Shown: one piece after another, positions 3,400 through 35,307 of the stretch
Layout: each line of letters starts with the position of its first letter
Position numbering within the stretch: position 1 is the first letter of the stretch
Assembly (NCBI RefSeq): GCF_963666195.1
Contig: NZ_OY762653.1
Coordinates: 806,001-870,000, forward strand
Origin: Trichococcus shcherbakoviae
GTDB lineage: Bacteria; Bacillota; Bacilli; Lactobacillales; Aerococcaceae
Length of the DNA: 64,000 nucleotides
Reading direction: 5' to 3'
Made by a program: the position numbers and the translations under genes
Notes under the pieces: generated by a model
What the model was told of the DNA's origin: nothing
The model's database searches: none
Seen by the model: only the letters and a program-made list of their open reading frames with translations

Positions 3400-4713
3400 T
3401 CAGACTTTTTCTTTCAGGATGATGTTCAAGACCAATGCAACGATCGTACCTGCCGAGATACCGGAAGAGAACAATCCGCTCAAGATGCCTGGCAATTGTG
3501 CCACTGTATCGGGAACAAAGGAAACTCCCAGACCGACACCCAACGCAGAAGCGACGATGATCATGTTGCGGTTGTTGAATTCAACGCGGGACAGTGATTG
3601 CACACCGGCAGCGGCAACTGTACCGAACATCAAGATGCCTGCACCACCCAAAACAGGTTGCGGCATGATTGAAATCAGGGTAGCAAATTTAGGGAACAGG
3701 CTCATCACGATCATGATGATACCGCCCATGATGGCTACTTTACGGGAAGCATTGCGGGTCAACGGGATCAATCCGGCATTTTGGCTGAAAGTTGCAGCTG
3801 GACCGGACCCGATGAAAGGCGCGATGAACGAACCGAAACCATCCGCACGGACACCGGCAGCAATTCTTTCATCCGTCAGTTTTGTTTCCGTAACGGCACC
3901 CAAAGTCTGCATAACGCCGACTGTTTCAATGACGGTTACGAGATAGCCGGATACGAAAGGAATCGCGTATTCAAGCTTGAAATCAGGCACTCCAAATTTG
4001 AAGAATTGTGGTAAGGCAAACCATTCAGCGGCAACTACCTGGCCGAAGTCGACCATCCCCAACGGAATGCAGACGACATAACCGATTGCGGCACCGATCA
4101 GAACAGCGGCTGGCGCGATTCTGCTTGGTCCGTAATGGTTGATCAAAGCGATGATCAGGAACACGAGCACTGCGATACCGATATTCATCGGATTACCGAA
4201 ATCCTCAGATCCGAAGCCACCGCCTGCCCAGCCCATCGCAACGGACATCAGCGTCATCCCCATCAAAGAGATAACCGAACCGGTAACAACCGGCGGGAAA
4301 AACTTCAACAATGGTTTTACAAAATAACTTAAACCAACTTCAAGTAAAGCACCCAACATCGTACCACCGAAGTAGGCAGTGATGCCGCCCGCTCCGATGA
4401 CGGCAGCAGCCGGTGCCACAAATGCAAAGTCAGTTCCCATGATCGTCGGCAAGCCCGCTCCGACGCGGAACCATTTCGGACCGAAACCTTTGGATTGAAT
4501 GATTGAAACGATACCCGAAGCCAAAAGCGCCGCGCTGACCATATAAGCAGTATCCTCAACCCCGAAACCTGCGATTCCGGCAATGATAAGCGGTACTGCC
4601 ACTAAACCACCGAAAGCGGTGATGACGTTCTGAAATCCTAAAACGATTGTCGTGCCTAAATCCGGTTTATCTTCCACACCGTAAGTCAGGCCTGTATGTA
4701 CTTTCTCTTCCAT
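3400..4713 (-). CDS. NCS2-family purine (xanthine/uracil-type) permease
   Basis: This 437-residue integral membrane transporter has about 12-14 hydrophobic segments. Family signatures are 'GFQNVITAFGGLVAVPLI' near the N-terminus, the substrate-site region 'VIETVGVMQTLGAVT', and 'GFGSFIAPFIGSGPAATFSQNAG'. NCS2 proteins import uracil, xanthine or urate by proton symport; the neighbouring guanine deaminase makes a xanthine- or guanine-type substrate plausible. The start is the ATG at 4713 (MEEKVHTG), preceded by GGAGGAG. An in-frame upstream extension exists but has no such site. Confidence 0.85.
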   Translation of the reverse strand: MEEKVHTGLTYGVEDKPDLGTTIVLGFQNVITAFGGLVAVPLIIAGIAGFGVEDTAYMVSAALLASGIVSIIQSKGFGPKWFRVGAGLPTIMGTDFAFVAPAAAVIGAGGITAYFGGTMLGALLEVGLSYFVKPLLKFFPPVVTGSVISLMGMTLMSVAMGWAGGGFGSEDFGNPMNIGIAVLVFLIIALINHYGPSRIAPAAVLIGAAIGYVVCIPLGMVDFGQVVAAEWFALPQFFKFGVPDFKLEYAIPFVSGYLVTVIETVGVMQTLGAVTETKLTDERIAAGVRADGFGSFIAPFIGSGPAATFSQNAGLIPLTRNASRKVAIMGGIIMIVMSLFPKFATLISIMPQPVLGGAGILMFGTVAAAGVQSLSRVEFNNRNMIIVASALGVGLGVSFVPDTVAQLPGILSGLFSSGISAGTIVALVLNIILKEKV

Positions 4714-5024
4714 GTTTCTCCTCCTGATAACGAACATTAATGATTGCAAAACAAAATATAATTCGTTTATTAACGACAAATAAAATTATATCGATATCAC
4801 ATACAATTGTAAAGTGTAAAAAACGAATTATAAGGGCTTTCATTATGAGAATCTTCACATTTTTAGACGTTAAAAGGGTTAAAAGCGAACGTTTCGAATT
4901 TTTTTTGGGTATTTGTATTGAAATAACGAATTATGCTTTATATATCATTGTCAGATACGGGTGCGATGTAGTCTGATTTTTTGTTATACTGTAGTAAATG
5001 AAACAGATGAATGGAGCATAAGCA
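4714..5024. promoter_or_regulatory. divergent control region with CGAA motifs
   Basis: This roughly 310-base AT-rich gap separates the divergent permease and Nudix genes. It contains several AACGAAC / AACGAAT-type motifs, near 4730, 4762 (inverted), 4825 and 4925, which loosely resemble PurR boxes. I could not build a purine riboswitch here. Purine regulation is an inference. Confidence 0.3.
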
Positions 5025-5441
5025 ATGAAATCAGAAAAATCGTGCGGAGCCATCGTGCTCTCCCCAGATAACACTAACCGAAAAGTATTATTGATCAAAC
5101 ACGAAAACGGCGGCCATTGGGCATTCCCGAAAGGCCACGTCGAGGAAGGCGAAACGGAAGTCGAAACAGCATTGAGGGAAATCAAGGAAGAAACCGGCTT
5201 GAGCACCGATCTAAGCACCACCTTCCGGAAATCCGTCAGCTACTCCCCTGCTCCCGGCGTAATGAAAGAAGTCGTCTACTTCATCGCCTTCGCCCATACG
5301 GAAACAATCGAAAAGCAGGATGCCGAGATCACCGACTTCGCCTGGATGCCGTTCAATGAAGCTTTGCAGGCCATCACCTACGACAACGACAAAAGCATCC
5401 TGCAGTCCGCCATCGATTTTATCGAAGGCATGAAAAACTAA
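5025..5441 (+). CDS. Nudix hydrolase, diadenosine tetraphosphatase-like
   Basis: This 138-residue protein has a complete Nudix box at residues 37-59, from GHVEEGE through REIKEETGL, which binds the divalent metal and cuts a nucleoside diphosphate linked to another group. Its short single-domain form with the early 'SCGAIVL' strand and 'HWAFPKGHVE' resembles bis(5'-nucleosyl)-tetraphosphatases, but substrate assignment within the family is unreliable. The start ATG follows GGAGC by about 8 bases. The hairpin after it is shared with the convergent GntR gene. Confidence 0.8.
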   Translation: MKSEKSCGAIVLSPDNTNRKVLLIKHENGGHWAFPKGHVEEGETEVETALREIKEETGLSTDLSTTFRKSVSYSPAPGVMKEVVYFIAFAHTETIEKQDAEITDFAWMPFNEALQAITYDNDKSILQSAIDFIEGMKN

Positions 5442-6623: not shown

Positions 6624-6667
6624 GAAAAAGAGCACTCCACCAAAAACGATGGTATGCGCTCTTTCGT
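6624..6667 (-). terminator. terminator of the helicase operon
   Basis: On the minus strand, GAGCGCATACCA pairs with GGTGGAGTGCTC across an A/T-rich loop and is followed by TTTTTCG, directly after the helicase stop codon. Confidence 0.7.
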
Positions 6668-6679: not shown

Positions 6680-8755
6680 TCAAATCGAAAAGAAGTTGTT
6701 CAGAATCCACTTGATTTTCAAGCTTGCGGGAACCAATTGCATGAATTTTTGATGGGCCGTCAACTCTTCGATGGCCTTCTCGTTTTTCTCCAGATACGCT
6801 ACGACATTATCCAGAGAAACATCCCCTCCAGCAAGTCGTTCCACCATCCTTTTTATGTCGGGACCCGTGATCAAGGAGTGTTTGTCATGCAGTTGATATT
6901 TTTCTCCCTCAGTTGCGATGCTCTTGATGAGCAGCAGCAACGCGATATTGAACTTAGTCCCCCTGAATGTCACGATGCCTATATTCGTCTGATTGTCCTC
7001 ATACCAATAGTTCCCGTCATCGTAGTATAGTTCACTCTTCAAAAAATCAAAATCGCGGGTGATCTTGTCATTGTTCAGGGTCAGATAATCTCCCGTCCGC
7101 AAGAGCTTTTCCATATTCTCACGCACTTCGTTGGAGACGAAGCCTTCGTCGCTGATGAATTTCGGGGGTCTTCCTTCTTTCGTCATTTCCACCATGATGC
7201 GCTTAGCCTTCACATCGATATCTTTCACGATCCACACCCGGGCCGCCAACAGAATTTTGCTTTCGATCTGGATATCGGGTGTGAACGGCAGACTGCCGAT
7301 GCGCTCATGCTGGTAATGGACAGAAAAATCACTGGTAGTGAAAAACAGTGCATAGAAATCTCTGGAACGCAGCAGACGCTCTCCCTCCAAACCGACAATC
7401 GCCTCTTCATCCATGATTTCGATGAAGTCTTTTTCAACCATATAATCAATCAACAGCGCCAAATCTGCATCCGAAATCGCTGACCAGACCGGAAAGGTTT
7501 TATTCAGCTGCAACAATTGCGTCATCGGCATACTGACCTTTTGGAAAAGGATTGCCATCACCTGATGCGCCAAAGCATTGTAGGGAGTCTCGATCATTTC
7601 TGTTGCATCCAATTCACCCCGTTCCAGCAAATCCAATGCGGCATAGGTCTGAAGCATTTCCCAGGAGTCATCTTCCACAATGTGAAGGATGCTTTGGTGG
7701 CTTCTCCGTCCGCTGCGCCCCAGTCTTTGGCTCAACGAAGAAGTGGATGGAGGAGAACCGTACTGCACCACACTGTCCACCGATCCGATATCTATTCCCA
7801 ATTCCAAGGTGGAGGTGCAGGTGATCGTGAACAGCTGATCCTCATTATTTTTGGCAAAAAATTCCACTTCTTCACGCAAAAGTTTGTCCACCGATGAGTG
7901 ATGGGCAAAATAGCGGATGGGCGCGTTCTCTTTTTTTGCCATCTTATCCAATTTATGGGTGATTTCTTCCACTCTGTTGCGGGAATTCGGAAAAATCAGC
8001 ATCGTTTCCGTTTTGGAATACTGATAGATCGCTGCCAAGGATTCCCTTGCGACAAAGGGACCCGCCTCACCACTCGTGTAGTCTATCGTGACGAGCAGAT
8101 CATTTTTATCGCGGTCCACGAGAATATCCGTATCCCTCTGGCTGCCGAAGAAGGCTTTCGCATAACCGAAATCCTTCTTGTTCAAGGTTGCGCTCATCGC
8201 GATGAAACGTGGCGCTTGCATGAATTGGCTGATCCGTTGCAGCAACGATTGCAAATGAACACCACGTTCCGTCCCAAGAAAACTGTGCAACTCATCGATG
8301 ATGATCCATTCCACCCCTTTAAAGAGGTGCTGCGCCTTGCCAGGACGATTCACCAGCATGCCCTCTATCGATTCCGGTGTGATCAACAGAATACCTTTTG
8401 GTTGATTGACAACTTTCTTTTTCTGAGCCTGGGAAACCTCACCATGCCAGGGCGTGATCGGTATATCCAAATACGCACTGAGTTCGCTGATGCGCTGAAA
8501 TTGATCATTGATCAGTGCTTTCAAAGGAGAGATGTACAGCACCTTCAGCCCCGTATCCCAATCTTCCACGCTGTTCAGCGCCGGAATGAATGCCGCTTCC
8601 GTTTTCCCCGATGCCGTCGGAGCTGACAGAATAATGTTATGATCGGTATTGGCAACCTGTTTGATGGCAGCATTTTGAATACGCGTTAAGCTCGGCCAGC
8701 CTTTATCATAGATGTACTGCTGGATGTCCCGGCTGAGACTGTCAAATGCCTGCAT
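6680..8755 (-). CDS. brxHI: DEAD/DEAH-box helicase, BrxHI/Lhr-like
   Basis: This 691-residue superfamily 2 helicase has Walker A 'APTASGKT' at 45-52, the DEVH-type box 'DELH' at 154-157, 'SAT' at 188-190 and motif VI 'QRLGRSGRR' at 343-351. It lacks the long C-terminal Lhr extension and is about the size of BREX BrxHI helicases. Its ATG overlaps the stop codon of the BrxD-like gene (TGATG), so the two are probably translationally coupled. The three-gene operon, and BREX genes elsewhere in the window, point to phage defence. The symbol is by similarity; the trio could also act as a stand-alone system. Confidence 0.7.
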   Translation of the reverse strand: MQAFDSLSRDIQQYIYDKGWPSLTRIQNAAIKQVANTDHNIILSAPTASGKTEAAFIPALNSVEDWDTGLKVLYISPLKALINDQFQRISELSAYLDIPITPWHGEVSQAQKKKVVNQPKGILLITPESIEGMLVNRPGKAQHLFKGVEWIIIDELHSFLGTERGVHLQSLLQRISQFMQAPRFIAMSATLNKKDFGYAKAFFGSQRDTDILVDRDKNDLLVTIDYTSGEAGPFVARESLAAIYQYSKTETMLIFPNSRNRVEEITHKLDKMAKKENAPIRYFAHHSSVDKLLREEVEFFAKNNEDQLFTITCTSTLELGIDIGSVDSVVQYGSPPSTSSLSQRLGRSGRRSHQSILHIVEDDSWEMLQTYAALDLLERGELDATEMIETPYNALAHQVMAILFQKVSMPMTQLLQLNKTFPVWSAISDADLALLIDYMVEKDFIEIMDEEAIVGLEGERLLRSRDFYALFFTTSDFSVHYQHERIGSLPFTPDIQIESKILLAARVWIVKDIDVKAKRIMVEMTKEGRPPKFISDEGFVSNEVRENMEKLLRTGDYLTLNNDKITRDFDFLKSELYYDDGNYWYEDNQTNIGIVTFRGTKFNIALLLLIKSIATEGEKYQLHDKHSLITGPDIKRMVERLAGGDVSLDNVVAYLEKNEKAIEELTAHQKFMQLVPASLKIKWILNNFFSI

Positions 8756-10083
8756 CAGTAAACCTCTATTTCATCGTGGTCATCTGCGTCCTTCGCCACA
8801 ACTGAAGGCTTTCTGCCGAAGCGATCGGCAAGGATATGGCTGAAAGAATAGTCCGGGTTCTGGCGCTGCAAGGACAGAATTTCGATATAATCCTTGATGA
8901 CGGACCGCGGCGTCAGAAAGGCAGCAGCTCCTGGTCGGTTCAATTGTTCTTCCATATATTGCTTGATTTCGCTGTCCTTCACGGTCAGCGTCGTTTGATA
9001 GGCCGTATTGTATATTTCCAACAGCTTGGTCAAAAGGATAAAGATTTCCTCCGCTGTCAGCGGCTTCAGATCGATGACGGTGCTGTTCACATTGACATAG
9101 TCCTTATTTTTCATCAATTCGTTCCCGAAGCGTGTTTTCAAAGCGCCATAACTGGCCAGCCCTCTGCGTTCGTCATATACCGTGTTCTTCGTAGCGCCAA
9201 AATTGATGAATAAGCCTTTTGCTTCATTCGTTTTCGTTTCGTTGTACAGATTGAGGATCATTTCATAATTTTTTTCACGGGTCAACGAACGCGGTAATTT
9301 GTACAGATTGACGGATTCATCAAAGTTTATGACAAATCCCTTGTAGCCGATCTTCAGGAATAATTCCGCCAGATTTTTCAAGGCGATGAGATAATTCGAG
9401 TCGTTGATGACGTTCTTGATGCCCAATTCTTTGGAGGCTTCCGTTTTCGTCGTGATATCCCCGCGGATCCAGCGAATCGCCTCAATCTGAAGGGACATAT
9501 TGTCGCCCGCAATCCCCTCGAAATACTTCATCAGCGCTTGCCCGAATTCATAGGAAAGCCCCGATGAATAGAAGGAATTCGTCGTCTTCAGAATGGCATT
9601 CTCCACCAATTTCCAATGGGTCTTTTCCATCAAAACGGGAACGGTGAGACTGTTTTCCGCGGCAATCTGCTCGAGCAGAACCTGAATCCATTGCTGCACG
9701 ATAGTCTCAATCGCATTCCCGTCGCGGTTGTTCTTGATGACGATCTTATTGACGACTTCATTGTACAACGCCAACGCTTTCCCGGATGAATCATAGAAAC
9801 GACGCGTTGGGGTCAAGTCGATCGTGGAGACGACGAAATTCTTTTGCAGCGCCAACGATTCGATCGTCCGCAACACGAAACTTTTGCCTGACCCGAAATC
9901 GCCTACCCAAAACCGCAAATCACTGTTGCCGTCCTCCAATTTTTGCAAGGTGTCAATGATTTCCTTGACTTCATTGCTCCTGCCTACCAACACATGCTGT
10001 ACCCCTTTTACCGGAACAACGCCTGCCTCAAGCGAGGCAATAATCGTTTGGGCATCCTTCTTTCTTAGCTTGATTTCAGCCAT
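8755..10083 (-). CDS. brxD: BrxD-like ATP-binding protein (DUF2791 family)
   Basis: This 442-residue P-loop ATPase has Walker A 'GDFGSGKS' at residues 61-68. The region after it (strand, 'TIDLTPTRRFYDSSGKALALYNEVVNKIV', later 'GFVINFDESVNLYKL', which looks like the Walker B region) matches the DUF2791 family known in BREX types 2 and 6 as BrxD. Its start overlaps the upstream TerB-like gene by 8 bases and its stop overlaps the helicase start by one, so the three genes form a tight operon. No membrane segments are present. In BREX, BrxD is a putative ATPase partner of the helicase, but its exact job is not established. Confidence 0.72.
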   Translation of the reverse strand: MAEIKLRKKDAQTIIASLEAGVVPVKGVQHVLVGRSNEVKEIIDTLQKLEDGNSDLRFWVGDFGSGKSFVLRTIESLALQKNFVVSTIDLTPTRRFYDSSGKALALYNEVVNKIVIKNNRDGNAIETIVQQWIQVLLEQIAAENSLTVPVLMEKTHWKLVENAILKTTNSFYSSGLSYEFGQALMKYFEGIAGDNMSLQIEAIRWIRGDITTKTEASKELGIKNVINDSNYLIALKNLAELFLKIGYKGFVINFDESVNLYKLPRSLTREKNYEMILNLYNETKTNEAKGLFINFGATKNTVYDERRGLASYGALKTRFGNELMKNKDYVNVNSTVIDLKPLTAEEIFILLTKLLEIYNTAYQTTLTVKDSEIKQYMEEQLNRPGAAAFLTPRSVIKDYIEILSLQRQNPDYSFSHILADRFGRKPSVVAKDADDHDEIEVY

Positions 10084-11947
10084 CTATCCATTCCCTCATT
10101 TCTTCCATAAAATCCTCTTCAATGATGACCTGCTGTTGGCTTATCACAAGCACTTGATCATCAAATATTTCATACAGCACTTCATTCAATTCTGTTAGGT
10201 ACGCCTGATGGAGTTTTCCTTTAGTTTTTGCGTGTTCCTTGAAATCATTCAAAGATATCCCGTTGCCTACCACCAACTGTTTCAGGAACAGCATATGCTC
10301 AGACTCCTGCTCGCTGTCCGGATTTTCGGGCTCTTCTATAATAGAAGCCGAAGGAGATACCAATGTGGAGACCCTACTTTCTGCTTCGTTTTGCTCCTCA
10401 GCCAGTGACATTTCAATCTCTGCAAAAATATTCAGGCTCAAAGCCGAATCCAGCCCTTCATCGGTTTTCTCCTCACTCAGGTAAGAGTCAACCATATCAA
10501 TAATGGTATCCAAAGCAGAATGTGATGCGGTGATTAAGGCTGTGTCCAGTTTGATTTCTCTGCGTACCGGTTGCGTGCATTCCTTCAAAAGCCCCGGCAA
10601 CCTTTCGAATGTCAGATCCGCATCAGCCAGTAACCGCTGATAATCGGCCTGTCTGGTTGGCTGAATGAAGCCATCCCGCTCTTTTTGCAGCGCTTTTGAT
10701 ACCGGCAAAGCCATCCTTTCCATTAAAAATATAAAAATGATGCGCTTATCCGGATCCTCGCTTTGCTTGATCACCTTCGTGGCTATCTTCTTCAAGTCCG
10801 GATCTTTTGCAAAAACCTCAAGCAGCCCGCTGATCTGCTCAAGCGATTGGCTGATTAACAGATTGGCGGCCTCATGCCAGACGGTTTTGTTCACGTCCCG
10901 CAAGGCTGTTATGGTTTGATAATCCAGCTCCAGCTCAACTTCTTGGCTCAGATAGCCTTGAATCTTCATGAACGTTTCATCCGGCAAATATTTTTGCAGA
11001 TTCTGCAGGCTTTCCTCAGCAGGCACCACGCGGAGACCCTCGACCTCCTTGCGGATCATGTTTTCGGCTAGGAGATAAAGGTCTGCCGGCAAACGGACCG
11101 TTTCTGCCCAGATACGCTCATCATCCAGTGGTAATTGGAAATATTTCCTAAAATAATTATTGGGCTTGATCTTCCATTTGATGGAGCCATCCTCCAGATC
11201 ATGCAACACAAGCTGCATAAGGTCTGCGTAATTCCGCAAACAAAGGCTCATGACAGACGGTACTTCCGTAAACCTCGTCACCCTTTTCCTCAGCTGATCG
11301 AAATACGCCATTTCGATCCCGTCAAAAAATTGTTTGTCGCGTAGCATTCCTGATGGATCCCACCAAACAATTTTGGTGCCGAATTGCGTCAATCCAAATT
11401 TTATTCTGGTCTCCTCATCCGGAAAGGGTAAATTTTTTCGGTACGCATCTACTTCATGCGTAAGGATTTTTTGGATATCCAAGGGTAGCATGGTTCTCAG
11501 GTCATAGGAAAAAAACACAGACACTTGAACATTATCCAGTCGATACGAAGAACAAACAACCTCTCTGGATAACCGATAGATTTCGTCAAAAGCAGTCACA
11601 TGATAATAGTAACGCTCATATTTCACATGTTTTATGTTTTTATGCTTCTTTTTCAATTCCACATCGACGATGGCGCATAATCTTTCAAATAATGCACCAA
11701 CCACTTCCTCGATTTGCCTAGTAAAATTGTCATTCAATCTTACGGGCGGCGAAACATAGCTGATCCAAGCTCTTTCTGAGGCCTTCTGCTCAGCTCTCTC
11801 TTTAGCTTTTTTCTGATGCCTCTGCTCCACGATGAGATCTCTTGGTTTGATGAAAGACTCCTCATTATTCACCAATTCAATGATCGATATCTTTTCTTCT
11901 TCAGTAAGCTTCTTATTTTTGAATATTTTATTTATGAAATCGAACAT
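10076..11947 (-). CDS. TerB-C-like protein, first gene of the BrxD/BrxHI operon
   Basis: This protein of about 623 residues has no enzymatic motif I recognise. It begins MFDFINKIFKNKKL, has a basic coiled segment (about residues 35-60, 'RHQKKAKERAEQKASERAW'), a long helical middle, an acidic linker rich in E and S (about 520-560), and a C-terminal module ('FLKQLVVGNGISLNDFKEHAKTKGKL...DQVLVISQQQVIIEEDF') like TerB C-terminal domains. Proteins of this type are usually encoded just before a DUF2791 ATPase and a helicase. The ATG at 11947 is chosen because AAGGGGG precedes it and a good promoter lies 44 bases upstream; the frame stays open further but that part overlaps the promoter and hicA. 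The domain call is moderate. Confidence 0.6.
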   Translation of the reverse strand: MFDFINKIFKNKKLTEEEKISIIELVNNEESFIKPRDLIVEQRHQKKAKERAEQKASERAWISYVSPPVRLNDNFTRQIEEVVGALFERLCAIVDVELKKKHKNIKHVKYERYYYHVTAFDEIYRLSREVVCSSYRLDNVQVSVFFSYDLRTMLPLDIQKILTHEVDAYRKNLPFPDEETRIKFGLTQFGTKIVWWDPSGMLRDKQFFDGIEMAYFDQLRKRVTRFTEVPSVMSLCLRNYADLMQLVLHDLEDGSIKWKIKPNNYFRKYFQLPLDDERIWAETVRLPADLYLLAENMIRKEVEGLRVVPAEESLQNLQKYLPDETFMKIQGYLSQEVELELDYQTITALRDVNKTVWHEAANLLISQSLEQISGLLEVFAKDPDLKKIATKVIKQSEDPDKRIIFIFLMERMALPVSKALQKERDGFIQPTRQADYQRLLADADLTFERLPGLLKECTQPVRREIKLDTALITASHSALDTIIDMVDSYLSEEKTDEGLDSALSLNIFAEIEMSLAEEQNEAESRVSTLVSPSASIIEEPENPDSEQESEHMLFLKQLVVGNGISLNDFKEHAKTKGKLHQAYLTELNEVLYEIFDDQVLVISQQQVIIEEDFMEEMREWIDG

Positions 11948-11990: not shown

Positions 11991-12019
11991 AGTATACGTC
12001 TATTGGACCGCATATTCAA
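11991..12019 (-). promoter_or_regulatory. promoter of the TerB-brxD-brxHI operon
   Basis: On the minus strand TTGAAT (12019-12014), a 17-base spacer and TATACT (11996-11991) form a good sigma-70-type promoter, and they support the start at 11947. Confidence 0.6.
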
Positions 12020-12211
12020 GAACGCTTGTTCTATGAATTTTGGATTAAAGCCCTGTTCAATTGCCTTAGAGTTAGATTGGCGAAACACGGTCCGAAATGA
12101 GTTGCACATAGACGAAATTTTAAAGTTTCCAGAGTATATTTCCGTATATTCTAGAAGATTGATGGAATAGGTAAAATCTGTAGAATTAGATTGTTTTAAT
12201 GAATCACAAAA

Positions 12212-12265: not shown

Positions 12266-12457
12266 ATGCCACAGACAGCCAGACAAGTTTTGAAGTTATT
12301 AAAAGAGCTTGGGTTTATGGAAGTTCGCATCATCGGTGACCATCATCGTTATGAAGATGGCAACGGACATAAAGTAACGGTTCCCTACAGTAGTCTCAAA
12401 GATGAAATAGCTCCGGGCACATACAACAACATCCTGAAGCAAGCCGGACTAAAATAA
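12266..12457 (+). CDS. hicA: HicA toxin
   Basis: This 63-residue protein is the HicA mRNA interferase of a type II toxin-antitoxin pair. It has the small double-stranded RNA-binding-like fold: 'TARQVLKLLKELGF', then the catalytic region 'GDHHRYEDGNGHKVTVP' with His26/His27, then 'APGTYNNILKQAGL'. HicA cleaves mRNA in the cytosol and is held inactive by HicB. The ATG follows AGGAG by 8 bases. hicB starts 27 bases after its stop, in the usual toxin-first order. The pair sits inside the defence island, divergent from the TerB operon. Confidence 0.9.
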   Translation: MPQTARQVLKLLKELGFMEVRIIGDHHRYEDGNGHKVTVPYSSLKDEIAPGTYNNILKQAGLK

Positions 12458-12484
12458 TTGATTTATATAGAGGAGGAAATCATT

Positions 12485-12886
12485 ATGGCGCACACGCACT
12501 ATGTTGCTTATCCAGCAGTTCTCGACGATAGCGAAAATGATACAGGAACATACACAGTAACCTTTCCGGATGTACCGGGCGCAATTTCCGAAGGAGTCGG
12601 AATTCCAGATGCACTGGCCAACGGCGCTGAAGCATTGGAATTGATGCTTTATGATGAAAAAAACCTACCAACAGCATCTCACTTATCAGATGTCCAAGCC
12701 GATAATCCCAAAGCGATTGTGAGCTATATTATGGTTGATCTTATTGCAGCCGCTAAAAAAGTAAAAATGCCTGTTGTCAGAAAAAATACAACGATTCCTG
12801 TCGATTTGGCTGAAAAAGCTGAAGAAGCCGGCATCAATTTTTCCGCGACATTGACAGAAGCTTTAAAAGATAAATTAGGAGTCTAG
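12485..12886 (+). CDS. hicB: HicB antitoxin
   Basis: This 133-residue protein has the partial RNase H-like HicB fold in its first ~70 residues ('YPAVLDDSENDTGTYTVTFPDVPGAISEGVGIPDALANGAEAL') and a C-terminal DNA-binding part ('TTIPVDLAEKAEEAGINFSATLTEAL', ribbon-helix-helix type), so it should both neutralise HicA and bind its own promoter. The ATG at 12485 has GAGGAGG just upstream; the ORF is open further 5' but without a ribosome site. A hairpin terminator overlaps the end of the gene. Confidence 0.9.
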   Translation: MAHTHYVAYPAVLDDSENDTGTYTVTFPDVPGAISEGVGIPDALANGAEALELMLYDEKNLPTASHLSDVQADNPKAIVSYIMVDLIAAAKKVKMPVVRKNTTIPVDLAEKAEEAGINFSATLTEALKDKLGV

Positions 12887-16264: not shown

Positions 16265-19200
16265 GCTATAGTTTCCTTATAAAATCGGCTAAACTAAAAT
16301 GTTACATTATTCTAAGGAGTGAAGAAGCATGCCATAGTTTCCTTACAAAATCGGTTAAAATAAAACGTAAGTCGATTCGAGCAAAAGTGTCGGGTCGCCA
16401 TAGTTTCCTTACAAAATCGGTTAAAATAAAACCACCCCTCACGGCTCTTTCGGCTGCGGGCAGCTATAGTTTCCTTACAAAATCGGCTAAAATAAAACTC
16501 AGCTGGAAAGGTGATCCGCTTTAGCTAAGGCTATAGTTTCCTTACAAAATCGGCTAAAATAAAACGATACTGTGGTAGAAGTCTGTACTTTTGCGGCTAT
16601 AGTTTCCTTACAAAATCGGCTAAAATAAAACAAGCAGGCCGTCGCACATTGACTATCAAGGGCTATAGTTTCCTTACAAAATCGGCTAAAATAAAACATT
16701 CTTCTTCAATGGCCTCTCTCGCTTGTTGCTATAGTTTCCTTACAAAATCGGCTAAAATAAAACGTGTGGCGGCTAACTTATTCATGCTGATAGGCTATAG
16801 TTTCCTTACAAAATCGGCTAAAATAAAACAACACGAAAAAAGGAAAACAGAAATTTTTGGCTATAGTTTCCTTACAAAATCGGCTAAAATAAAACATCGC
16901 AGATTTAATCAATCCTCAAGTAATGGCTATAGTTTCCTTACAAAATCGGCTAAAATAAAACCGCAACGCCTTCTGCAACGTCCACTGCATCGCTATAGTT
17001 TCCTTACAAAATCGGCTAAAATAAAACTGATTGCCTTGCTGCTTGTTTACATGATGGGCTATAGTTTCCTTACAAAATCGGCTAAAATAAAACACGCTGC
17101 TTGAATGGCATGAGCGTCAAGGCGCTATAGTTTCCTTACAAAATCGGCTAAAATAAAACAATAAGCCTGATCAGATTGAGGATAGCATCGCTATAGTTTC
17201 CTTACAAAATCGGCTAAAATAAAACGCAAGCAAGCTTTAAAAGTCAGCATCCCGGGCTATAGTTTCCTTACAAAATCGGCTAAAATAAAACAATTTTCTC
17301 ACCTCGCTTTCAGTTGTTTTAGCTATAGTTTCCTTACAAAATCGGCTAAAATAAAACAAAATTATTGTAATACCGTTCCATTGTTACGCTATAGTTTCCT
17401 TACAAAATCGGCTAAAATAAAACAAACCTGAAACCTCGTGAAACTCAATGGCAGCTATAGTTTCCTTACAAAATCGGCTAAAATAAAACCAAGGACACGA
17501 AAGATGTTGCGTTGGCAATCGCTATAGTTTCCTTACAAAATCGGCTAAAATAAAACGTGGCTGCACGTGGAAAGACAACACAACTTGCTATAGTTTCCTT
17601 ACAAAATCGGCTAAAATAAAACTTACAAAATCAAACAAACTCATTCAGAAGAGCTATAGTTTCCTTACAAAATCGGCTAAAATAAAACAAACAATGGACT
17701 GATACCGATTTAGCAGAGGCTATAGTTTCCTTACAAAATCGGCTAAAATAAAACCTAAAGTATAACGTTGAAGCGAATGCTTCGGCTATAGTTTCCTTAC
17801 AAAATCGGCTAAAATAAAACTACCATGGGTCTATGAAATAATAGAATTCAGCTATAGTTTCCTTACAAAATCGGCTAAAATAAAACATACCGGAAGAGTA
17901 TTAAAGGATTTGAACGCTATAGTTTCCTTACAAAATCGGCTAAAATAAAACTGTCGGCTTTGTATGGCATTGTTGTTACCTGCTATAGTTTCCTTACAAA
18001 ATCGGCTAAAATAAAACTCCGGAGAAACCGAAAAACTCTTGTGTCAAGAGCTATAGTTTCCTTACAAAATCGGCTAAAATAAAACTCAGCGTTATTGTTT
18101 TAGCACTTCCATTCTGCTATAGTTTCCTTACAAAATCGGCTAAAATAAAACCCGCAACGGCTCTAGATAAAGTCATGGAGGGCTATAGTTTCCTTACAAA
18201 ATCGGCTAAAATAAAACCGGTCAATGTGTCGGGTCATGTCGAAGTTGGCTATAGTTTCCTTACAAAATCGGCTAAAATAAAACCACGTAGTTGATGCCGC
18301 CTGATCTGCGAATGCTATAGTTTCCTTACAAAATCGGCTAAAATAAAACAATTAAGATGTACGGCTTATAGCTTTGTAAGCTATAGTTTCCTTACAAAAT
18401 CGGCTAAAATAAAACTCCATTGCAATCTATAATGAAATGCAATAGGCTATAGTTTCCTTACAAAATCGGCTAAAATAAAACATGAACCCTTGATCTCCCT
18501 CTTGTATGTAGGCTATAGTTTCCTTACAAAATCGGCTAAAATAAAACAGCGTGAAATATATAGGTGCAGGCGGAACGGCTATAGTTTCCTTACAAAATCG
18601 GCTAAAATAAAACAGCCGTGAAAACATTAGAAGGAGCTTTGAAGCTATAGTTTCCTTACAAAATCGGCTAAAATAAAACCATTGAACCCGCATATCGCAC
18701 GTATGGTGCGCTATAGTTTCCTTACAAAATCGGCTAAAATAAAACTTTCATGATGCTTTGGTAGTTCTTGTTCATGCTATAGTTTCCTTACAAAATCGGC
18801 TAAAATAAAACCCGAACTCTTTCCAGCTTTTAAATGCTTAGCTATAGTTTCCTTACAAAATCGGCTAAAATAAAACCCTGACGACGCGCCAACCGTTGAA
18901 CCAGAAGCTATAGTTTCCTTACAAAATCGGCTAAAATAAAACACCAACCATCCCATCATGTGTTTTGTAATAGCTATAGTTTCCTTACAAAATCGGCTAA
19001 AATAAAACAACAGGTCTGTTATAGTGCTATATGTGATTGCTATAGTTTCCTTACAAAATCGGCTAAAATAAAACATAAAGACTATTTACTGGAGAACGTC
19101 GCCAGCTATAGTTTCCTTACAAAATCGGCTAAAATAAAACATGAATTCGAACTTATGAAGCGCTTACATTGCTATAGTTTCCTTACAAAATCGGCTAAAA

Positions 19201-22200
19201 TAAAACCACGTAGTTGATGCCGCCTGATCTGCGAATGCTATAGTTTCCTTACAAAATCGGCTAAAATAAAACTTAGCTGTGTCGACTTTACCAGTTGCCT
19301 TAGGCTATAGTTTCCTTACAAAATCGGCTAAAATAAAACAGAGGCGATGCCGGAAGCCGATGCCATCATGCTATAGTTTCCTTACAAAATCGGCTAAAAT
19401 AAAACAATGGTACTTAATAGCGCATCACATTCCTTGCTATAGTTTCCTTACAAAATCGGCTAAAATAAAACAAGGGTTACAAAATGGGTACGAGGACAAT
19501 GGCTATAGTTTCCTTACAAAATCGGCTAAAATAAAACTCCCTCTTCCATCTCTTATTTGATTACATAGCTATAGTTTCCTTACAAAATCGGCTAAAATAA
19601 AACCTCAGTCATAGGCGCATTGCCGAACTCTCTGCTATAGTTTCCTTACAAAATCGGCTAAAATAAAACTCGGGATTCAGCTATCTGAAGCAGTCGTGAG
19701 CTATAGTTTCCTTACAAAATCGGCTAAAATAAAACTTTAATCATTGATTACCCCTCCGCCGGTTTGCTATAGTTTCCTTACAAAATCGGCTAAAATAAAA
19801 CATCTTTCCTCAACAAGAATGCACTGGGCTTGCTATAGTTTCCTTACAAAATCGGCTAAAATAAAACAAATGTACCCGACATTTAAACTGGCAACCAGCT
19901 ATAGTTTCCTTACAAAATCGGCTAAAATAAAACAACTTTTTTTGTTTTATTTTCCCCCTACTAGCTATAGTTTCCTTACAAAATCGGCTAAAATAAAACG
20001 AATTCCATTGACTATTCAAGATGCAATCAGCTATAGTTTCCTTACAAAATCGGCTAAAATAAAACAAAATTACGGTATCACCTTTTTTGAATTTCGCTAT
20101 AGTTTCCTTACAAAATCGGCTAAAATAAAACTTTTTCACAAACTTGCTTTGTTCCCCTATAGCTATAGTTTCCTTACAAAATCGGCTAAAATAAAACAAA
20201 AGTAGGTGAACTAAATGCTAGTTGACCGCTATAGTTTCCTTACAAAATCGGCTAAAATAAAACAACTAGCTTTCTTCCCTATATAGGTGTATAGCTATAG
20301 TTTCCTTACAAAATCGGCTAAAATAAAACCCTTGTCCCCTAATTCTTTTTATCTATATAGCTATAGTTTCCTTACAAAATCGGCTAAAATAAAACTGACG
20401 CGCTGGTTTACTTGGATCAAACGGCGCTATAGTTTCCTTACAAAATCGGCTAAAATAAAACGCCACGCGCTCCCAGAAACATTAACCGTACGCTATAGTT
20501 TCCTTACAAAATCGGCTAAAATAAAACAGTCAAAAATGATTGAAGTCGGAAGCACAGGCTATAGTTTCCTTACAAAATCGGCTAAAATAAAACAAGCGCG
20601 AGCTTTCGGATACTGAGAAACTAGCTATAGTTTCCTTACAAAATCGGCTAAAATAAAACATGCAACAATCCCACAAACCTATTTCACGGGCTATAGTTTC
20701 CTTACAAAATCGGCTAAAATAAAACTTAAAAGTAGGAATGCCGTTGTGCAGGGTGGCTATAGTTTCCTTACAAAATCGGCTAAAATAAAACTCACAGACC
20801 CAACTGGTGAAGACAAAGCCATTGCTATAGTTTCCTTACAAAATCGGCTAAAATAAAACGGTCCTCGTAACTTATTAGACCTGTGTATTGCTATAGTTTC
20901 CTTACAAAATCGGCTAAAATAAAACGAAACAATTGCAGCCACTCTCATTCCTAGTGCTATAGTTTCCTTACAAAATCGGCTAAAATAAAACGCCTCTGCA
21001 CAGCAGGTCCTAACCTTCCTAGCTATAGTTTCCTTACAAAATCGGCTAAAATAAAACTCACTCCTGTTGGGTTTATAAACTTCTTAAGCTATAGTTTCCT
21101 TACAAAATCGGCTAAAATAAAACCCATTTTACTGAGTACCCCGCTTCCCCTTGGCTATAGTTTCCTTACAAAATCGGCTAAAATAAAACAAACGGTGGCG
21201 GGTTTGCAGGCGCAGTTTGGCTATAGTTTCCTTACAAAATCGGCTAAAATAAAACATGGGACGACGAGCTGGGCAGCAACGACTAGCTATAGTTTCCTTA
21301 CAAAATCGGCTAAAATAAAACAGGTACGGCTGCTGTTCATACCTCCTCCTGGCTATAGTTTCCTTACAAAATCGGCTAAAATAAAACTTGGTGGAAGTTT
21401 GTTTCATCGACAATGCCGCTATAGTTTCCTTACAAAATCGGCTAAAATAAAACGATGTTGCTCATTTGTTTACTGATACACTAGCTATAGTTTCCTTACA
21501 AAATCGGCTAAAATAAAACTTAAATAAAAGTGCAAACACTTCTGTATGTTGCTATAGTTTCCTTACAAAATCGGCTAAAATAAAACTACGTCCGGCATCT
21601 GCCAGACGAAAGACAAGCTATAGTTTCCTTACAAAATCGGCTAAAATAAAACTTTATCTTGAAAGAAAACGAGGTCCAACATGCTATAGTTTCCTTACAA
21701 AATCGGCTAAAATAAAACGCACCTGGTCTATCGTGTCTCCTGTGTAGCGGCTATAGTTTCCTTACAAAATCGGCTAAAATAAAACTTCTAACATGATTAA
21801 GGCATTAAAGCCGTAGCTATAGTTTCCTTACAAAATCGGCTAAAATAAAACAAAAGGCTTCTAGGGAGTACCGCAAGGCATCGCTATAGTTTCCTTACAA
21901 AATCGGCTAAAATAAAACATGCGTATGAGACAAGTGATTATTTGATTGGCTATAGTTTCCTTACAAAATCGGCTAAAATAAAACGCAAGAGCAACAGCGG
22001 AGAGATAGAGAATTGCTATAGTTTCCTTACAAAATCGGCTAAAATAAAACTGACGCGCTGGTTTACTTGGATCAAACGGCGCTATAGTTTCCTTACAAAA
22101 TCGGCTAAAATAAAACAAAGATGAAATGTATAACGAACAAGTCGAGGCTATAGTTTCCTTACAAAATCGGCTAAAATAAAACACATGGCATTTAACAAAC

Positions 22201-22649
22201 GCATACCACTTGAGCTATAGTTTCCTTACAAAATCGGCTAAAATAAAACCCGATCCGAGCGTTTATGAAAAGCTGAAGGGCTATAGTTTCCTTACAAAAT
22301 CGGCTAAAATAAAACTAAGTCAATTTTCAAGTTCTGCAATCGTTTGCTATAGTTTCCTTACAAAATCGGCTAAAATAAAACTCATGGACCGATGATGGCG
22401 GTATCACAAGAGCTATAGTTTCCTTACAAAATCGGCTAAAATAAAACTCATCTCTAAGAACTTGAGATAGTGACCTTGCTATAGTTTCCTTCCTTACAAA
22501 ATCGGCTAAAATAAAACATATAGGTTCTCTACAGCAGTTCCTGATGAGCTATAGTTTCCTTACAAAATCGGCTAAAATAAAACGCGACTATGATAATTCA
22601 GATGATGAAATAGGCTATAGTTTCCTTACAAAATCGGCTAAAATAAAAC
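16265..22649 (+). CRISPR. type II-C CRISPR array, first block (97 repeats)
   Basis: The 36-bp repeat begins GCTATAGTTTCCTTAC and ends GGCTAAAATAAAAC. Spacers are mostly 30 bp (range 29-32), giving a period of 66. By my count there are 97 repeats here. The first (16265) is clearly degenerate, and the second and third (16331, 16397) share GCCATAG and GGTTAAAA variants. One late repeat (22478) has a 4-bp internal duplication. Pairing with the tracrRNA shows that the plus strand carries the crRNA. Long open frames encoding 'YSFLTKSAKIK' or 'FYFSRFCKETIA' are artefacts of the 66-bp period. The block ends in a 26-bp partial spacer at the insertion sequence. Confidence 0.98.
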
Positions 22650-22675
22650 TTCATCATCTATGTATTTAATGTCTA

Positions 22676-24254
22676 CTGAATAATTAACAAACCTTATCAT
22701 AACAGCGTTTTTAGATGTTTTTTGGTATAATAGATACATGGAATCCAGGGCAAAACACCAAAAACCCGTGCACTTTTTTCAAAAATGATACGAAGAGGCG
22801 ATGAAAATGTACAAAAAGCAGACGAATCGGCAATTAACCATTTATGACTTCGATCAGCCATTGGGCCTTACGATGAACCCAGAAAACCGTTGGGTCAAAA
22901 AAGCGGATTCGATTCCCTGGTCAGTCATTGAAGATAAGTATGCTGCTCTGTTCAACAGTGACAGAGGAAACATCGCCAAACCGGTAAGGATGGCACTAGG
23001 TGCCTTGATTATTCAAAGCGAATTTCAGTATGCAGATACCGAAGTCGTCAATCAGATTCGCGAAAATCCCTATCTGCAGTACTTTGTCGGACTACCTTCC
23101 TATAAGGATGAAAAGCCATTCGATGCTTCTTCGATGGTGCACTTCCGCAAACGTCTCTCGTCCGAAATTCTGATTGAAATCAATGAATTGATCCTCAAAC
23201 CTATAGAGGATGGAGCAGATGATTCCCAAACTGACGATAATGACAATAATGATGACAATGATGCATCAGGATCTGAGAATGAAGGGACGCTCATTCTAGA
23301 TGCCACTTGCGCGCCTTCAGAAATCAAGTTCCCGCAAGACACGGAACTGTTGAACGAATGTCGGGAAAAGTTGGAAGGCATCATCGACGTAATCTGCGAA
23401 GCAAACCACCTTCCCAAACCCCGCACCTATCGGAAAATGGCCCGAAGGGATTATCTCAACATCGCGCGCAAGAAAAAGAAAAGCAGCAAACAAATTCGCA
23501 AAGCCATCGGCAAGCAACTGAACTACATCCGGCGAGATTTAGGGTACATCGACGCATTTCTGGAGCAAGGTTATACGCTAGGAACGAAGCAAGTCGACCT
23601 GTTGGGGACTTTGCGGAAATTGTATGAACAGCAGCTCTATATGCACACAAGCAGGACGCACAAAGTGCAGGATCGCATCGTCAGTATCAGCCAGCCGTTT
23701 ATTCGCCCGATTGTCCGCGGAAAAGCCAAGAACCCGGTGGAGTTCGGAGCCAAACTGGACATGAGCATAACCAATGGGTACGCCCGACTCGAAAAAATTT
23801 CCTTCGATGCCTACAACGAGAGCGAATGCCTCATAGTTGCAGTGGAACGCTACAAAGAACGGATGGGAGTGTATCCTGAACGAGTTTTGGCGGATAAAAT
23901 ATACCGAAATCGCACAAACTTGAGCTACTGCAAAGAACTCGGAATCCGATTATCCGGCCCGTCGCTCGGCAGGCCCAAGAAGGATCAAAAGGTTGACAAA
24001 AAACAAGAATACACCGACAACTGCGATCGAGTAGAGGTCGAAAGAGGCTTCAGCCTGGCGAAAAGAAAGTTCGGGCTCAGGCTTATTCGAACACGCCTTG
24101 AAGAGACCAGTCTGTGTGTGATTGCTTTATCCATTCTTACAATGAACCTGTCCAAGGTTTCATTGCGCATTTTTTTGACTATCATCCAATTGATGAGCTT
24201 ACCCAGAATTGAACCCCTTGTGAACCCGTAAGCTAAAAATAGCTATTTATTCAG
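22676..24254 (+). mobile_element. IS1182-like insertion sequence inside the CRISPR array
   Basis: Short imperfect inverted ends (CTGAATAATTAAC on the left, CTGAATAAATAGC as the complement of the right) bound about 1.58 kb holding one transposase gene. No target duplication is visible. The left spacer remnant is 26 bp and the right one 24 bp, too much together for one 30-bp spacer, so the flanks appear to come from two different spacers. Confidence 0.8.
22801..24231 (+). CDS. IS1182/IS5-like transposase
   Basis: This 476-residue transposase has the N-terminal domain typical of the group ('QTNRQLTIYDFDQPLGL', 'VRMALGALIIQSEFQYADTEVVNQIRENPYLQYFVGL', 'SSMVHFRKRLS'), the first catalytic Asp in 'LILDATCAPSEIKFP', and a later DDE region ('PERVLADKIYRNRTNLSYCKELGIRLSGP', 'NCDRVEVERGFSLAKRKFGL'). 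A 25-residue acidic insert (Asp/Asn-rich, about residues 135-160) sits between the two parts. The frame is intact. GAAGAGG precedes the ATG. Confidence 0.82.
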   Translation: MKMYKKQTNRQLTIYDFDQPLGLTMNPENRWVKKADSIPWSVIEDKYAALFNSDRGNIAKPVRMALGALIIQSEFQYADTEVVNQIRENPYLQYFVGLPSYKDEKPFDASSMVHFRKRLSSEILIEINELILKPIEDGADDSQTDDNDNNDDNDASGSENEGTLILDATCAPSEIKFPQDTELLNECREKLEGIIDVICEANHLPKPRTYRKMARRDYLNIARKKKKSSKQIRKAIGKQLNYIRRDLGYIDAFLEQGYTLGTKQVDLLGTLRKLYEQQLYMHTSRTHKVQDRIVSISQPFIRPIVRGKAKNPVEFGAKLDMSITNGYARLEKISFDAYNESECLIVAVERYKERMGVYPERVLADKIYRNRTNLSYCKELGIRLSGPSLGRPKKDQKVDKKQEYTDNCDRVEVERGFSLAKRKFGLRLIRTRLEETSLCVIALSILTMNLSKVSLRIFLTIIQLMSLPRIEPLVNP

Positions 24255-24278
24255 CAGGCATTATTTAAAGAGCTTAGA

Positions 24279-31281: not shown

Positions 31282-32403
31282 TCAGTCCAAAATTCGCATT
31301 AAATCATAGTTGCGATACTTCCTGTTTCTGATTGCAGTCTCGTCTGTATACAAAAGACCTGCATCAGATAAGGCTTTTAATCCCTTTCTGGCGGTGCCAG
31401 GAGCAAGATGCAAGTTTTCTGCTACGCGAGTTGCAGTTGTGTAGGGGTCGGAAAAAGTATACAGCCAAATATTTTTCTCGGATTCTAACGAACATTTTTT
31501 TAATCCATTCGAGGCGAGTTCTTCGACTGCTTTTAATTTGCTCAACAAAGAATCAGCCATCCGTCCGCATGCGGTGATAAAAAACTTGATCCAAGAATAC
31601 CAATCAGGGTTGTCTCCTCTTACCCCGTTCAGCATGGCATAATAGCGAGCACGTTCTTTTTCCAACTCTTCGCTCACAAAGAATACCGGGACATCCACCA
31701 GATCTTCTTTAATAGCGATAAGAGCAATCAGAATTCTTCCCAACCTGCCGTTCCCATCCAAAAACGGATGAATCGACTCAAATTGAACATGCATGACAGC
31801 CGCTTTAATGATCGGATCGCACTCTTCATCAAATACGAATCCGTCCGTTTTGTTGAATTTACGGAAACTACTGTTAGGAACGCCATTCATGTAAAAATTT
31901 AAATTCTCCATGTATTCATCGATTTCATTTGCCGCAATCGGAATATACACAGCATCCTCTATCCTGTTGCTGGGACCTATGAAATTCTGTATATTTCTGA
32001 ATTCACCGCCGGATGCGTTGGAACCTCGCGCATTTCCCATCAAAGTCCGGTGCAATTCTTTGATTAAACGTGTGCTGATGGGATAGCCAGTTTTAATGCT
32101 TGAAGCCCCTTGCCGCAAGGCTTCCTGATAATTGAGTACCTCTATCCTTTCCCAACTCGGATTTTTCTCGCCTCTTTCTTCTACCATATCGGTAAAAGTG
32201 ACTGGTGTTCCTTCAATTCTGGTTGAGTGTATAGATTCCTTCAAATAGAACAAATTCTCAATATATTTCTTCATGAAAGACCGATTGTACTGACCGCTTG
32301 CATATCCAACCTTATAGTTGACCTCAGCCAACAGTTTGTAGATAACAAGCGCATGTTCGTTCGGTATCATAATAGGTAACTTTGATGTTCCTTCTTTCGA
32401 CAT
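31282..32403 (-). CDS. Fic-domain protein with N-terminal inhibitory helix
   Basis: This protein of about 373 residues has the full Fic active site 'HPFLDGNGRLGR' (His212 to Arg223), so it should transfer AMP (or another nucleotide) to a protein target. 'STRIEGT' at residues 60-66 fits the (S/T)xxxE(G/N) inhibitory motif, placing it in the class whose own N-terminus blocks ATP binding. The C-terminal ~90 residues look like a winged helix ('PYTTATRVAENLHLAPGTARKGLKALSDAGLL'), suggesting DNA binding or autoregulation. The ATG at 32403 has GGAGG 6 bases upstream. It sits between the tracrRNA gene and cas9 on the same strand. Its target is unknown. Confidence 0.88.
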   Translation of the reverse strand: MSKEGTSKLPIMIPNEHALVIYKLLAEVNYKVGYASGQYNRSFMKKYIENLFYLKESIHSTRIEGTPVTFTDMVEERGEKNPSWERIEVLNYQEALRQGASSIKTGYPISTRLIKELHRTLMGNARGSNASGGEFRNIQNFIGPSNRIEDAVYIPIAANEIDEYMENLNFYMNGVPNSSFRKFNKTDGFVFDEECDPIIKAAVMHVQFESIHPFLDGNGRLGRILIALIAIKEDLVDVPVFFVSEELEKERARYYAMLNGVRGDNPDWYSWIKFFITACGRMADSLLSKLKAVEELASNGLKKCSLESEKNIWLYTFSDPYTTATRVAENLHLAPGTARKGLKALSDAGLLYTDETAIRNRKYRNYDLMRILD

Positions 32404-32423
32404 GATAGCCTCCAAAAAAAGTG

Positions 32424-32528: not shown

Positions 32529-32534
32529 AAACAA

Positions 32535-32563
32535 ACTATACTCTATTATTTAATGAAATGCAA
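32535..32563 (-). promoter_or_regulatory. tracrRNA promoter
   Basis: On the minus strand TTGCAT (32563-32558), a 17-base spacer and TATAGT (32540-32535) place the start of the RNA near 32528, just ahead of the anti-repeat. Confidence 0.7.
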
Positions 32564-32606
32564 ACACTTTCTTAAACTTTATTATCCGAAAATTTAAACA
32601 GTGTTA

Positions 32607-35300: not shown

Positions 35301-35307
35301 TCTATTA

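What the first reader, a model, noticed from the sequence alone, without database searches (positions are those of the whole stretch)
6680..11947. Compact TerB-C-like/BrxD/BrxHI operon as a possible stand-alone defence system
The three genes overlap by 8 bases and 1 base, share one promoter (11991-12019) and one terminator (6624-6667), and combine an uncharacterised 623-residue protein, a P-loop ATPase and an SF2 helicase. The first gene has no recognisable catalytic site. The tight coupling suggests a fixed-ratio complex.
Basis: partly seen in the sequence, partly recalled or inferred. Interest (0 to 1): 0.7.

Follow-up and report, generated by a model that had tools for sequence, protein, structure and literature searches.

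The report
Divergent Shango phage-defence operon in Trichococcus
The three-gene cluster is a version of the known bacterial anti-phage system Shango, with an unusual first protein that evolves much faster than its partners and a promoter that looks as if it is switched on by DNA damage.

Summary
In detail: three overlapping genes, one conserved promoter, one terminator hairpin. They are sngABC of Shango (PADLOC SngC 8e-186, SngB 4e-141, SngA 2e-15), a published phage-defence system, so the stand-alone defence idea is already known and "BrxD/BrxHI" is the wrong label. New here: (1) SngA lacks TerB_N; it has another N-terminal domain ("WWD") and shares only the TerB_C end with usual SngA. In 66 SngB-like loci the two never co-occurred (37 TerB_N, 25 WWD, 4 neither); WWD types form one clade in the SngB and SngC trees. 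(2) SngB is in 13 of 13 Trichococcus genomes, BREX PglZ in 5 of 13. (3) SngA is the most divergent subunit in 7 of 7 groups and has been exchanged: against the same-species genome sngC differs by 1.3%, sngA by 20%. (4) A GAAC-N4-GTTC dyad abuts the -35 in 13 of 13 genomes, resembling the genus's recA and lexA boxes, so SOS control is likely. Inferred mechanism: SngA recognises, SngB (AAA+) loads or drives helicase SngC on phage DNA. Function was not tested here. New variant of a known kind.

The parts
10076..11947 (-). sngA, 623 aa, divergent SngA (WWD type)
   Evidence: PADLOC SngA 1.7e-15 over residues 257-621 only; Pfam TerB_C; start ATG supported by aligned relatives
11312..11695 (-). SngA residues 85-212: the 'WWD' domain (name coined here) that stands where usual SngA has TerB_N
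   Evidence: profile built here matches 23 SngA and none of the 37 with TerB_N; no profile similarity to TerB_N
10097..10576 (-). SngA residues 458-617: TerB_C (PF15615), the part shared with usual SngA
   Evidence: Pfam 3.1e-10; hhalign to TerB_N-type SngA, Prob 97.1, residues 462-622
10298..10447 (-). SngA residues 501-550: hypervariable linker inside the TerB_C match
   Evidence: mean pairwise identity 0.44-0.54 against 0.92-0.94 for residues 575-623, 11 Trichococcus SngA
8755..10083 (-). sngB, 442 aa P-loop ATPase (PF10923); Walker A GDFGSGKS present
   Evidence: PADLOC SngB 4.1e-141; Pfam 1.6e-117; motif read by eye
6680..8755 (-). sngC, 691 aa SF2 helicase; motifs APTASGKT, DELH, SAT and QRLGRSGR present
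   Evidence: PADLOC SngC 8.3e-186; Pfam DEAD and Helicase_C; best solved chains 5v9x and 7lhl, 'ATP-dependent DNA helicase' (that these are Lhr is recalled); motifs read by eye
11991..12019 (-). sigma-70-type promoter TTGAAT-17-TATACT
   Evidence: conserved in 13 of 13 Trichococcus but for one base in one genome
12020..12031 (-). GAACAAGCGTTC, LexA/DinR-like dyad abutting the -35
   Evidence: only strict match in the window; GAAC and GTTC invariant in 13 of 13; half-sites and spacing as in the genus's recA promoter, and but for the last base as in lexA
6624..6667 (-). terminator hairpin of the operon
   Evidence: fold z = -5.0

Best explanation
The operon is a Shango anti-phage system of a distinct subtype, seen here only in the order of the window's host. 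Shown by sequence: three overlapping genes behind one conserved promoter; ATPase and helicase motifs present in SngB and SngC; an SngA whose N-terminal half is a separate 'WWD' domain instead of TerB_N, joined to the TerB_C end found in both types; SngA is the most divergent subunit and has been exchanged by recombination; a LexA/DinR-like dyad abuts the promoter. Inferred: LexA holds the operon low, and DNA damage (incoming or replicating phage DNA, prophage induction) raises it. SngA is the recognition or adaptor subunit: its variable N-terminal half senses a phage product or DNA structure, and its TerB_C end docks on SngB/SngC. SngB, an ORC/Cdc6-like AAA+ ATPase, loads or drives SngC, an Lhr/Ski2-like SF2 helicase, onto phage DNA, whose remodelling blocks replication. 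No nuclease domain was found in the three proteins, so cleavage, if any, would be by host enzymes.
For: Family membership of all three proteins. SngC-like gene beside SngB in 64 of 66 loci (one of the two without is a short contig). Position of its SngB and SngC among Shango rows in the trees. TerB_C is the only part of SngA that aligns across the two types. Divergence of SngA exceeds SngB and SngC in 7 of 7 groups; dN/dS about 0.20 against 0.04 and 0.05. sngA replaced relative to the same-species genome. Conserved dyad, with similar boxes at recA, lexA and uvrB of the same genus; lexA present in 13 of 13. Defence by Shango shown by others (PMC10250203, passages). The loader-helicase idea is taken from what PMC12839542 proposes for BrxD/BrxHI (passages).
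Against: No experiment on this operon or, as far as found, on any WWD-type Shango. SngA matches the PADLOC profile only over its C-terminal 60%. The dyad alone is statistically modest (0.28 strict matches expected per 64 kb, 19 of 100 shuffles with at least one; p = 0.013-0.057 per Trichococcus promoter with the 14-mer; no genome-wide excess), and no comparable site was found upstream of most Shango loci outside Trichococcus, two other genera of its family (G021, G031, G041, G050) and g29. Fast SngA evolution can also mean weak constraint: dN/dS stays well below 1. Recombination is not confined to sngA: a neighbouring gene (1053-2423) also differs by 11% from the same-species genome; sngB and sngC distances track recA only weakly (r 0.25 and 0.27), and sngA tracks uvrB better (r 0.54) than sngB (0.10) or sngC (0.22) do.
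Confidence: 0.6

Rival explanations
1. Detached type 2 BREX module: BrxD and BrxHI work as accessories of the BREX system at about 32-44 kb of the window.
For: BrxD and BrxHI are a linked dyad in type 2 BREX (PMC12839542, passages); weaker PADLOC hits to BrxD and BrxHI; a BREX locus lies in the same window.
Against: Shango profiles score far higher for SngB and SngC; BrxD cut-off not reached; SngB in 13 of 13 genomes, PglZ in 5 of 13; the BREX genes found in the window are BrxA, BrxB, BrxC, PglX and PglZ, with no PglW found among the ORFs scanned.
Confidence: 0.05
2. A housekeeping DNA-repair or genome-maintenance module, not a defence system: SOS-regulated, genus-core, helicase plus AAA+ ATPase.
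For: 13 of 13 presence at a largely conserved site; LexA-like box; helicase relatives of Lhr type (name recalled).
Against: Patchy outside the genus: 36 of 395 genomes of the order and 26 of 398 of the phylum have an SngB-like match, a few of them BrxD-like; SngB-like genes are on 691 plasmid records (three of four records looked at had an annotated Shango trio); fast and exchanged SngA is typical of conflict genes; relatives protect against phages; damaged copies exist (an in-frame stop in sngA of G011).
Confidence: 0.12
3. SngA varies because it is weakly constrained scaffolding, not because it recognises anything.
For: dN/dS about 0.2; of the 8 regions tested none has pN above pS, and the fastest is the linker (pN 0.22, pS 0.40).
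Against: Variation runs along most of the protein; SngA is the most divergent in 7 of 7 groups; allele replacement at sngA inside one species is what changing specificity would give.
Confidence: 0.35

Closest known systems
Shango (SngABC), the TerB_N type seen on E. coli and Salmonella plasmids; by the literature also in P. aeruginosa PA14 (TerB-like)
   Same: Gene content and order, ATPase and helicase families, TerB_C end of SngA
   Different: SngA has the WWD domain instead of TerB_N; SngB about 30-32% identical to the enterobacterial plasmid copies listed; LexA-like box not seen upstream of the three proteobacterial plasmid copies checked
Type 2 BREX BrxD and BrxHI dyad
   Same: Related AAA+ ATPase and SF2 helicase side by side
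   Different: Part of a PglW/X/Y/Z system; curated BrxD cut-off not met; no methyltransferase or PglZ in this operon
Hachiman (HamAB)
   Same: Helicase in a defence complex that senses DNA state (PMC12278908, start of abstract seen in the listings)
   Different: No HamA nuclease; an AAA+ ATPase and SngA instead

Membership tests
Shango | SngB-type ATPase | tested here: met
   PADLOC SngB 4.1e-141, 469 bits, residues 1-427
Shango | SngC-type helicase | tested here: met
   PADLOC SngC 8.3e-186, residues 2-689
Shango | SngA with a TerB-type region in the same operon | tested here: met
   TerB_C above Pfam cut-off (40.9 against 26.3 bits); PADLOC SngA 1.7e-15 over profile 189-527 of 528, so partial
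Shango | SngB and SngC phylogeny among Shango rows | tested here: met
   WWD clade joins TerB_N-type rows with 99/96 support in the SngB tree (careful method) and 90, unstarred, in the SngC tree (quick method, SH-aLRT only); midpoint roots, and the tool warns of long branches, L065 beside the WWD rows among them
Shango | protects against phage | not testable with these tools
   shown for the PA14 system, and reported there for an E. coli one (PMC10250203, passages)
TerB_N-type (usual) Shango | TerB_N domain in SngA | tested here: not met
   no PF13208 hit at E up to 1; profile comparison of WWD and TerB_N Prob 0.1 (0.3 in global mode)
Type 2 BREX | BrxD equivalog | tested here: not met
   150.8 bits against cut-off 350
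Type 2 BREX | PglW, PglX, PglZ with the dyad | tested here: not met
   operon has three genes only; PglZ not found in 8 of 13 genomes that have SngB (two of the 13 genomes are only 51% and 63% complete, both among the 8); PglW not searched genome-wide
LexA (SOS) regulon | operator GAAC-N4-GTTC at the promoter | tested here: met
   13 of 13 promoters, like recA 13 of 13; lexA has GAAC-N4-GTTT in 13 of 13. Consensus recalled, not from a call
LexA (SOS) regulon | LexA binding and induction by DNA damage | not testable with these tools
   needs an experiment

The most novel reading that the evidence does not exclude
Shango is a sensor-swapping immune machine. A common TerB_C/AAA+/helicase chassis carries exchangeable N-terminal recognition halves (TerB_N, WWD, with or without membrane segments). 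In part of the Lactobacillales it is armed by LexA, so DNA damage caused by infection triggers it, and recombination of sngA retunes it within a species.
Probability: 0.35. Interest if true: 0.75.

Novelty: new variant of a known kind. Interest (0 to 1): 0.5.

Why it matters
I found no description of Shango's mechanism in the library searched (listings), and a 2026 review tabulates it as unknown (PMC12926258, passage). The variable subunit, the shared end that may dock on the motor, and a likely SOS promoter give three directly testable handles on it. A defence system found in every genome of a genus while BREX comes and goes is, in my judgement, unusual, and a search built on TerB_N or on full-length SngA could miss or under-call this subtype.

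Tried and rejected
Whole-SngA structure prediction (11 sequences) gave mean pLDDT 50.4 and no useful fold match: best Foldseek E 1.3, best VIA-align Z 5.2. The SngA 60-230 fragment gave pLDDT 71.4 in one of five models, 36-44 in the others. Its best second-look matches are three BLM helicase entries, two of them its HRDC domain (Z 6.6-7.0), below the level the tool calls trustworthy for helical folds; best Foldseek E 1.7. An HRDC-like nucleic-acid-binding role is a hint only and is not claimed; absence of other folds from these lists shows nothing.

Sequence search of solved structures: SngA one chance-level hit (E 0.73), SngB none. SngB had no match in phage records, the operon DNA and SngA none in plasmids. 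No Rfam family at 6000-33000. The genome-wide count of strict dyads (6 distinct sites; 8 strand matches against 6 for the reversed control pattern) is no enrichment; the argument rests on position, conservation and likeness to recA and lexA. An E. coli-type LexA box (CTGT-N8-ACAG) upstream of the three proteobacterial plasmid Shangos gave 2 or 3 mismatches only. A paper search pairing Trichococcus with defence words was uninformative (none of the 20 listed papers mentions the genus).

Rows handled by hand: among the 26 SngA-family hits, G117 reads as an ABC-F ATPase by eye, and G123, G117 and G145 have no SngB match in the fetched stretch. In the type count, L037 (frame interrupted) and L039 (the script picked the wrong ORF) were assigned WWD by hand. 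G378 was not fetched. G007 and G011 were left out of some alignments because a frame is broken; G149 was not yet held when the dN/dS was computed. One locus (L141) had too little upstream DNA for the box test.
Full report
What is there. Three - strand ORFs, 10076-11947, 8755-10083 and 6680-8755, overlap by 8 and 1 bases. PADLOC names them SngA (1.7e-15), SngB (4.1e-141) and SngC (8.3e-186); BrxD and BrxHI profiles also hit genes 2 and 3 but far lower (149.8 and 374.5 bits against 469 and 617.8). Pfam finds TerB_C in gene 1, BrxC_BrxD (PF10923) in gene 2, DEAD and Helicase_C in gene 3. The trio is therefore Shango. Shango from P. aeruginosa PA14, a TerB-like protein, an ATPase and a DEAD/DEAH helicase, gave 10- to 100-fold protection on plates against many but not all phages, and generally strong protection in liquid culture (PMC10250203, passages). 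That paper cites an earlier report of Shango in E. coli, which I know as Millman 2022 by recall and did not read.

Host and distribution. SngB is in 13 of 13 genomes of the genus. The genus SngA profile was found in 1 of 398 genomes spread over the phylum, the window itself. An SngB-like match at E up to 1e-30 is in 26 of 398 genomes of the phylum and 36 of 395 of the order; three of the 26 look BrxD-like. On the sngC side the permease (3400-4779) and the NUDIX gene (5025-5441) were found within the fetched stretches in 11 of 12 other genomes, at up to about 10 kb from the trio; the twelfth (G007, 51% complete) showed only the GntR gene. The other side is variable: BREX, Cas9 and a long CRISPR array here, but only about 0.4 to 1.9 kb between the trio and a relative of gene 45857-46837 in G149, G004, G006 and G009 (53% identity in G009, 86-88% in the others). 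PglZ was found in 5 of 13 genomes, so 8 of 13 carry the trio without it (two of these 8 genomes are incomplete); in G149 it is on another contig.

A different SngA. Of eight SngA proteins scanned with Pfam, two (L001, and L004 from G148) carry TerB_N plus TerB_C; the window's SngA and five relatives have TerB_C and no TerB_N. The E. coli and Salmonella plasmid copies are annotated 'TerB N-terminal domain-containing'. I built profiles for TerB_N and for the window's N-terminal region, which I call WWD after its motif (PFPDEETR..FGLT..GTK.VWWDPSG in the window). Among 66 loci with an SngB-like gene, 37 have TerB_N, 25 WWD (two of these assigned by hand) and 4 neither (L065 from Hymenobacter, and L145-L147, which look BrxD-like); none has both. 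These rows are related and not independent: the 25 are 13 Trichococcus and 12 others, all of the same order. Of the 26 SngB-positive genomes in the phylum sample, 21 have TerB_N, 3 neither, the window WWD, and 1 (G378) was not examined. WWD Shangos are one clade in the SngB tree (100/100, 100% of 200 bootstrap trees) and in the SngC tree (100, quick method); the tool warns of long branches in both. WWD and TerB_N profiles do not resemble each other (Prob 0.1). Across the two types only SngA residues 462-622 align (Prob 97.1), while the genus SngA and other WWD types align over residues 37-622 (E 9e-29). Some WWD-type SngA (L012, L153, L154) begin with hydrophobic, TM2-like segments (TM2 E 0.005, below the curated cut-off, for L012; the others by eye); the E. 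coli copy also begins with a hydrophobic stretch (by eye). In four genomes of the family (G021, G031, G041, G050) the order is B-C-A.

SngA varies most. In 11 to 12 Trichococcus genomes mean dN over mean dS is about 0.20 for sngA, 0.04 for sngB and 0.05 for sngC, at similar dS (0.62, 0.49, 0.57). SngA is the most divergent of the three in 7 of 7 groups, of both types; the A/B divergence ratio is 1.7 to 6.3 (groups of 2 to 11 loci, one a single pair). Against the same-species genome G149 the window differs by 0.1% in recA, 0.9% in the permease, 1.3% in sngC, 4.8% in sngB and 20.1% in sngA, while sngA of other species is closer (11.6% at best). In 200-base steps the nearest relative of window sngA keeps changing. 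So sngA has been exchanged by recombination. Against over-reading this: a neighbouring gene (1053-2423) also differs by 10.9% from G149; sngB and sngC distances correlate only weakly with recA (Pearson 0.25 and 0.27; sngA 0.32), whereas recA and uvrB agree at 0.98; and sngA tracks uvrB (0.54, G149 not included) better than sngB (0.10) or sngC (0.22) do. The whole locus recombines; sngA stands out by its divergence and by the G149 case.

A likely SOS promoter. The block upstream of ATG 11947 is conserved in 13 of 13 genomes: AGAAC-(A/G)-N-GC-GTTCTTGAA, then TATACT. Here 12020-12031 reads GAACAAGCGTTC, the only strict match in the window to GAAC-RNRY-GTTC; the Gram-positive LexA/DinR consensus behind this pattern is recalled from memory. 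In the same genus recA has GAAC-N4-GTTC 117 bases upstream of the match start in 13 of 13, lexA has GAAC-N4-GTTT in 13 of 13, and uvrB has CGAAAGTATGTTTG in 12 of 13 (the thirteenth stretch is shorter, so its offset is unsure). Of 16 GAAC-N4-GTTC sites in 16 fetched genus stretches, 13 are the sngA site, one of them seen twice in overlapping stretches. Similar boxes lie upstream of other Shangos: G021, G031, G041 and G050 (4 of 4; shuffles as good 0 to 3 of 300) and the g29 genomes, which are TerB_N type (8 of 10, 29 to 43 bases upstream, per-locus p 0.003 to 0.027); a few f10 loci have a weaker or lone match. Most of the remaining Shango loci, the plasmid copies included, have none. On count alone the site is not significant genome-wide. 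I found no paper linking Shango and LexA: the one paper holding both words mentions them separately.

How it most likely works. Shown by sequence: operon structure, conserved promoter, Walker A in SngB and helicase motifs in SngC, variable SngA with a conserved end. From the literature: BrxD is classed as an ORC-Cdc6-like AAA+ ATPase that may load BrxHI, a Ski2-like helicase with an Lhr-like C-terminus (PMC12839542, abstract, outline and passages); SngB and SngC are their relatives. Inferred: SngA recognises, TerB_C docks, SngB loads or drives SngC, phage DNA is remodelled so that replication fails, and LexA makes the system damage-inducible. My confidence by step: Shango identity 0.95, distinct subtype 0.85, SOS control 0.65, SngA as recognition subunit 0.5, helicase-based block without an own nuclease 0.35.

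Verdict. A defence operon of a known kind, complete in the window, in a variant whose SngA architecture and promoter I did not find described in the searches made (open-licence PubMed Central only, most subscription papers missing). Other papers: PMC10952713, PMC12926258 and PMC13216270 (passages); the rest as listings.

Noticed in passing
window 16265-26559: A CRISPR array of 131 repeats of 36 bases next to a Cas9, Cas1, Cas2 locus; it is interrupted at about 22650-24278, where a 476-aa ORF (22801-24231) sits. Spacers were not searched.
   Followed up: partly
window 31282-45434: BREX genes BrxA, BrxB, BrxC, PglX and PglZ with no unassigned ORF of BrxL size in the stretch; a Fic-family gene (SoFic profile) stands beyond PglZ and an AbiEi/AbiEii pair beside BrxA. 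BrxL was not searched elsewhere in the genome.
   Followed up: partly
window 12266-12886: A HicA/HicB toxin-antitoxin pair divergent from sngA, found at this spot in only some relatives.
   Followed up: no
window 45857-46837: A 326-aa protein without a Pfam or PADLOC match marks the far edge of the variable island in several Trichococcus genomes.
   Followed up: partly
L129, L130 (genes before SngB): SngA of 1431 and 1225 aa, with long extra N-terminal regions before TerB_N.
   Followed up: no
L005 (G145): A TerB_N-type SngA cut short at 401 aa beside an ORF that looks like a transposase by eye, with no SngB match in the fetched stretch.
   Followed up: no
L132, L133, L136, L141: TerB_N-type SngA of about 790-870 aa from one family (f69) with TerB_N starting only after residue 340, so an added N-terminal module.
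   Followed up: no
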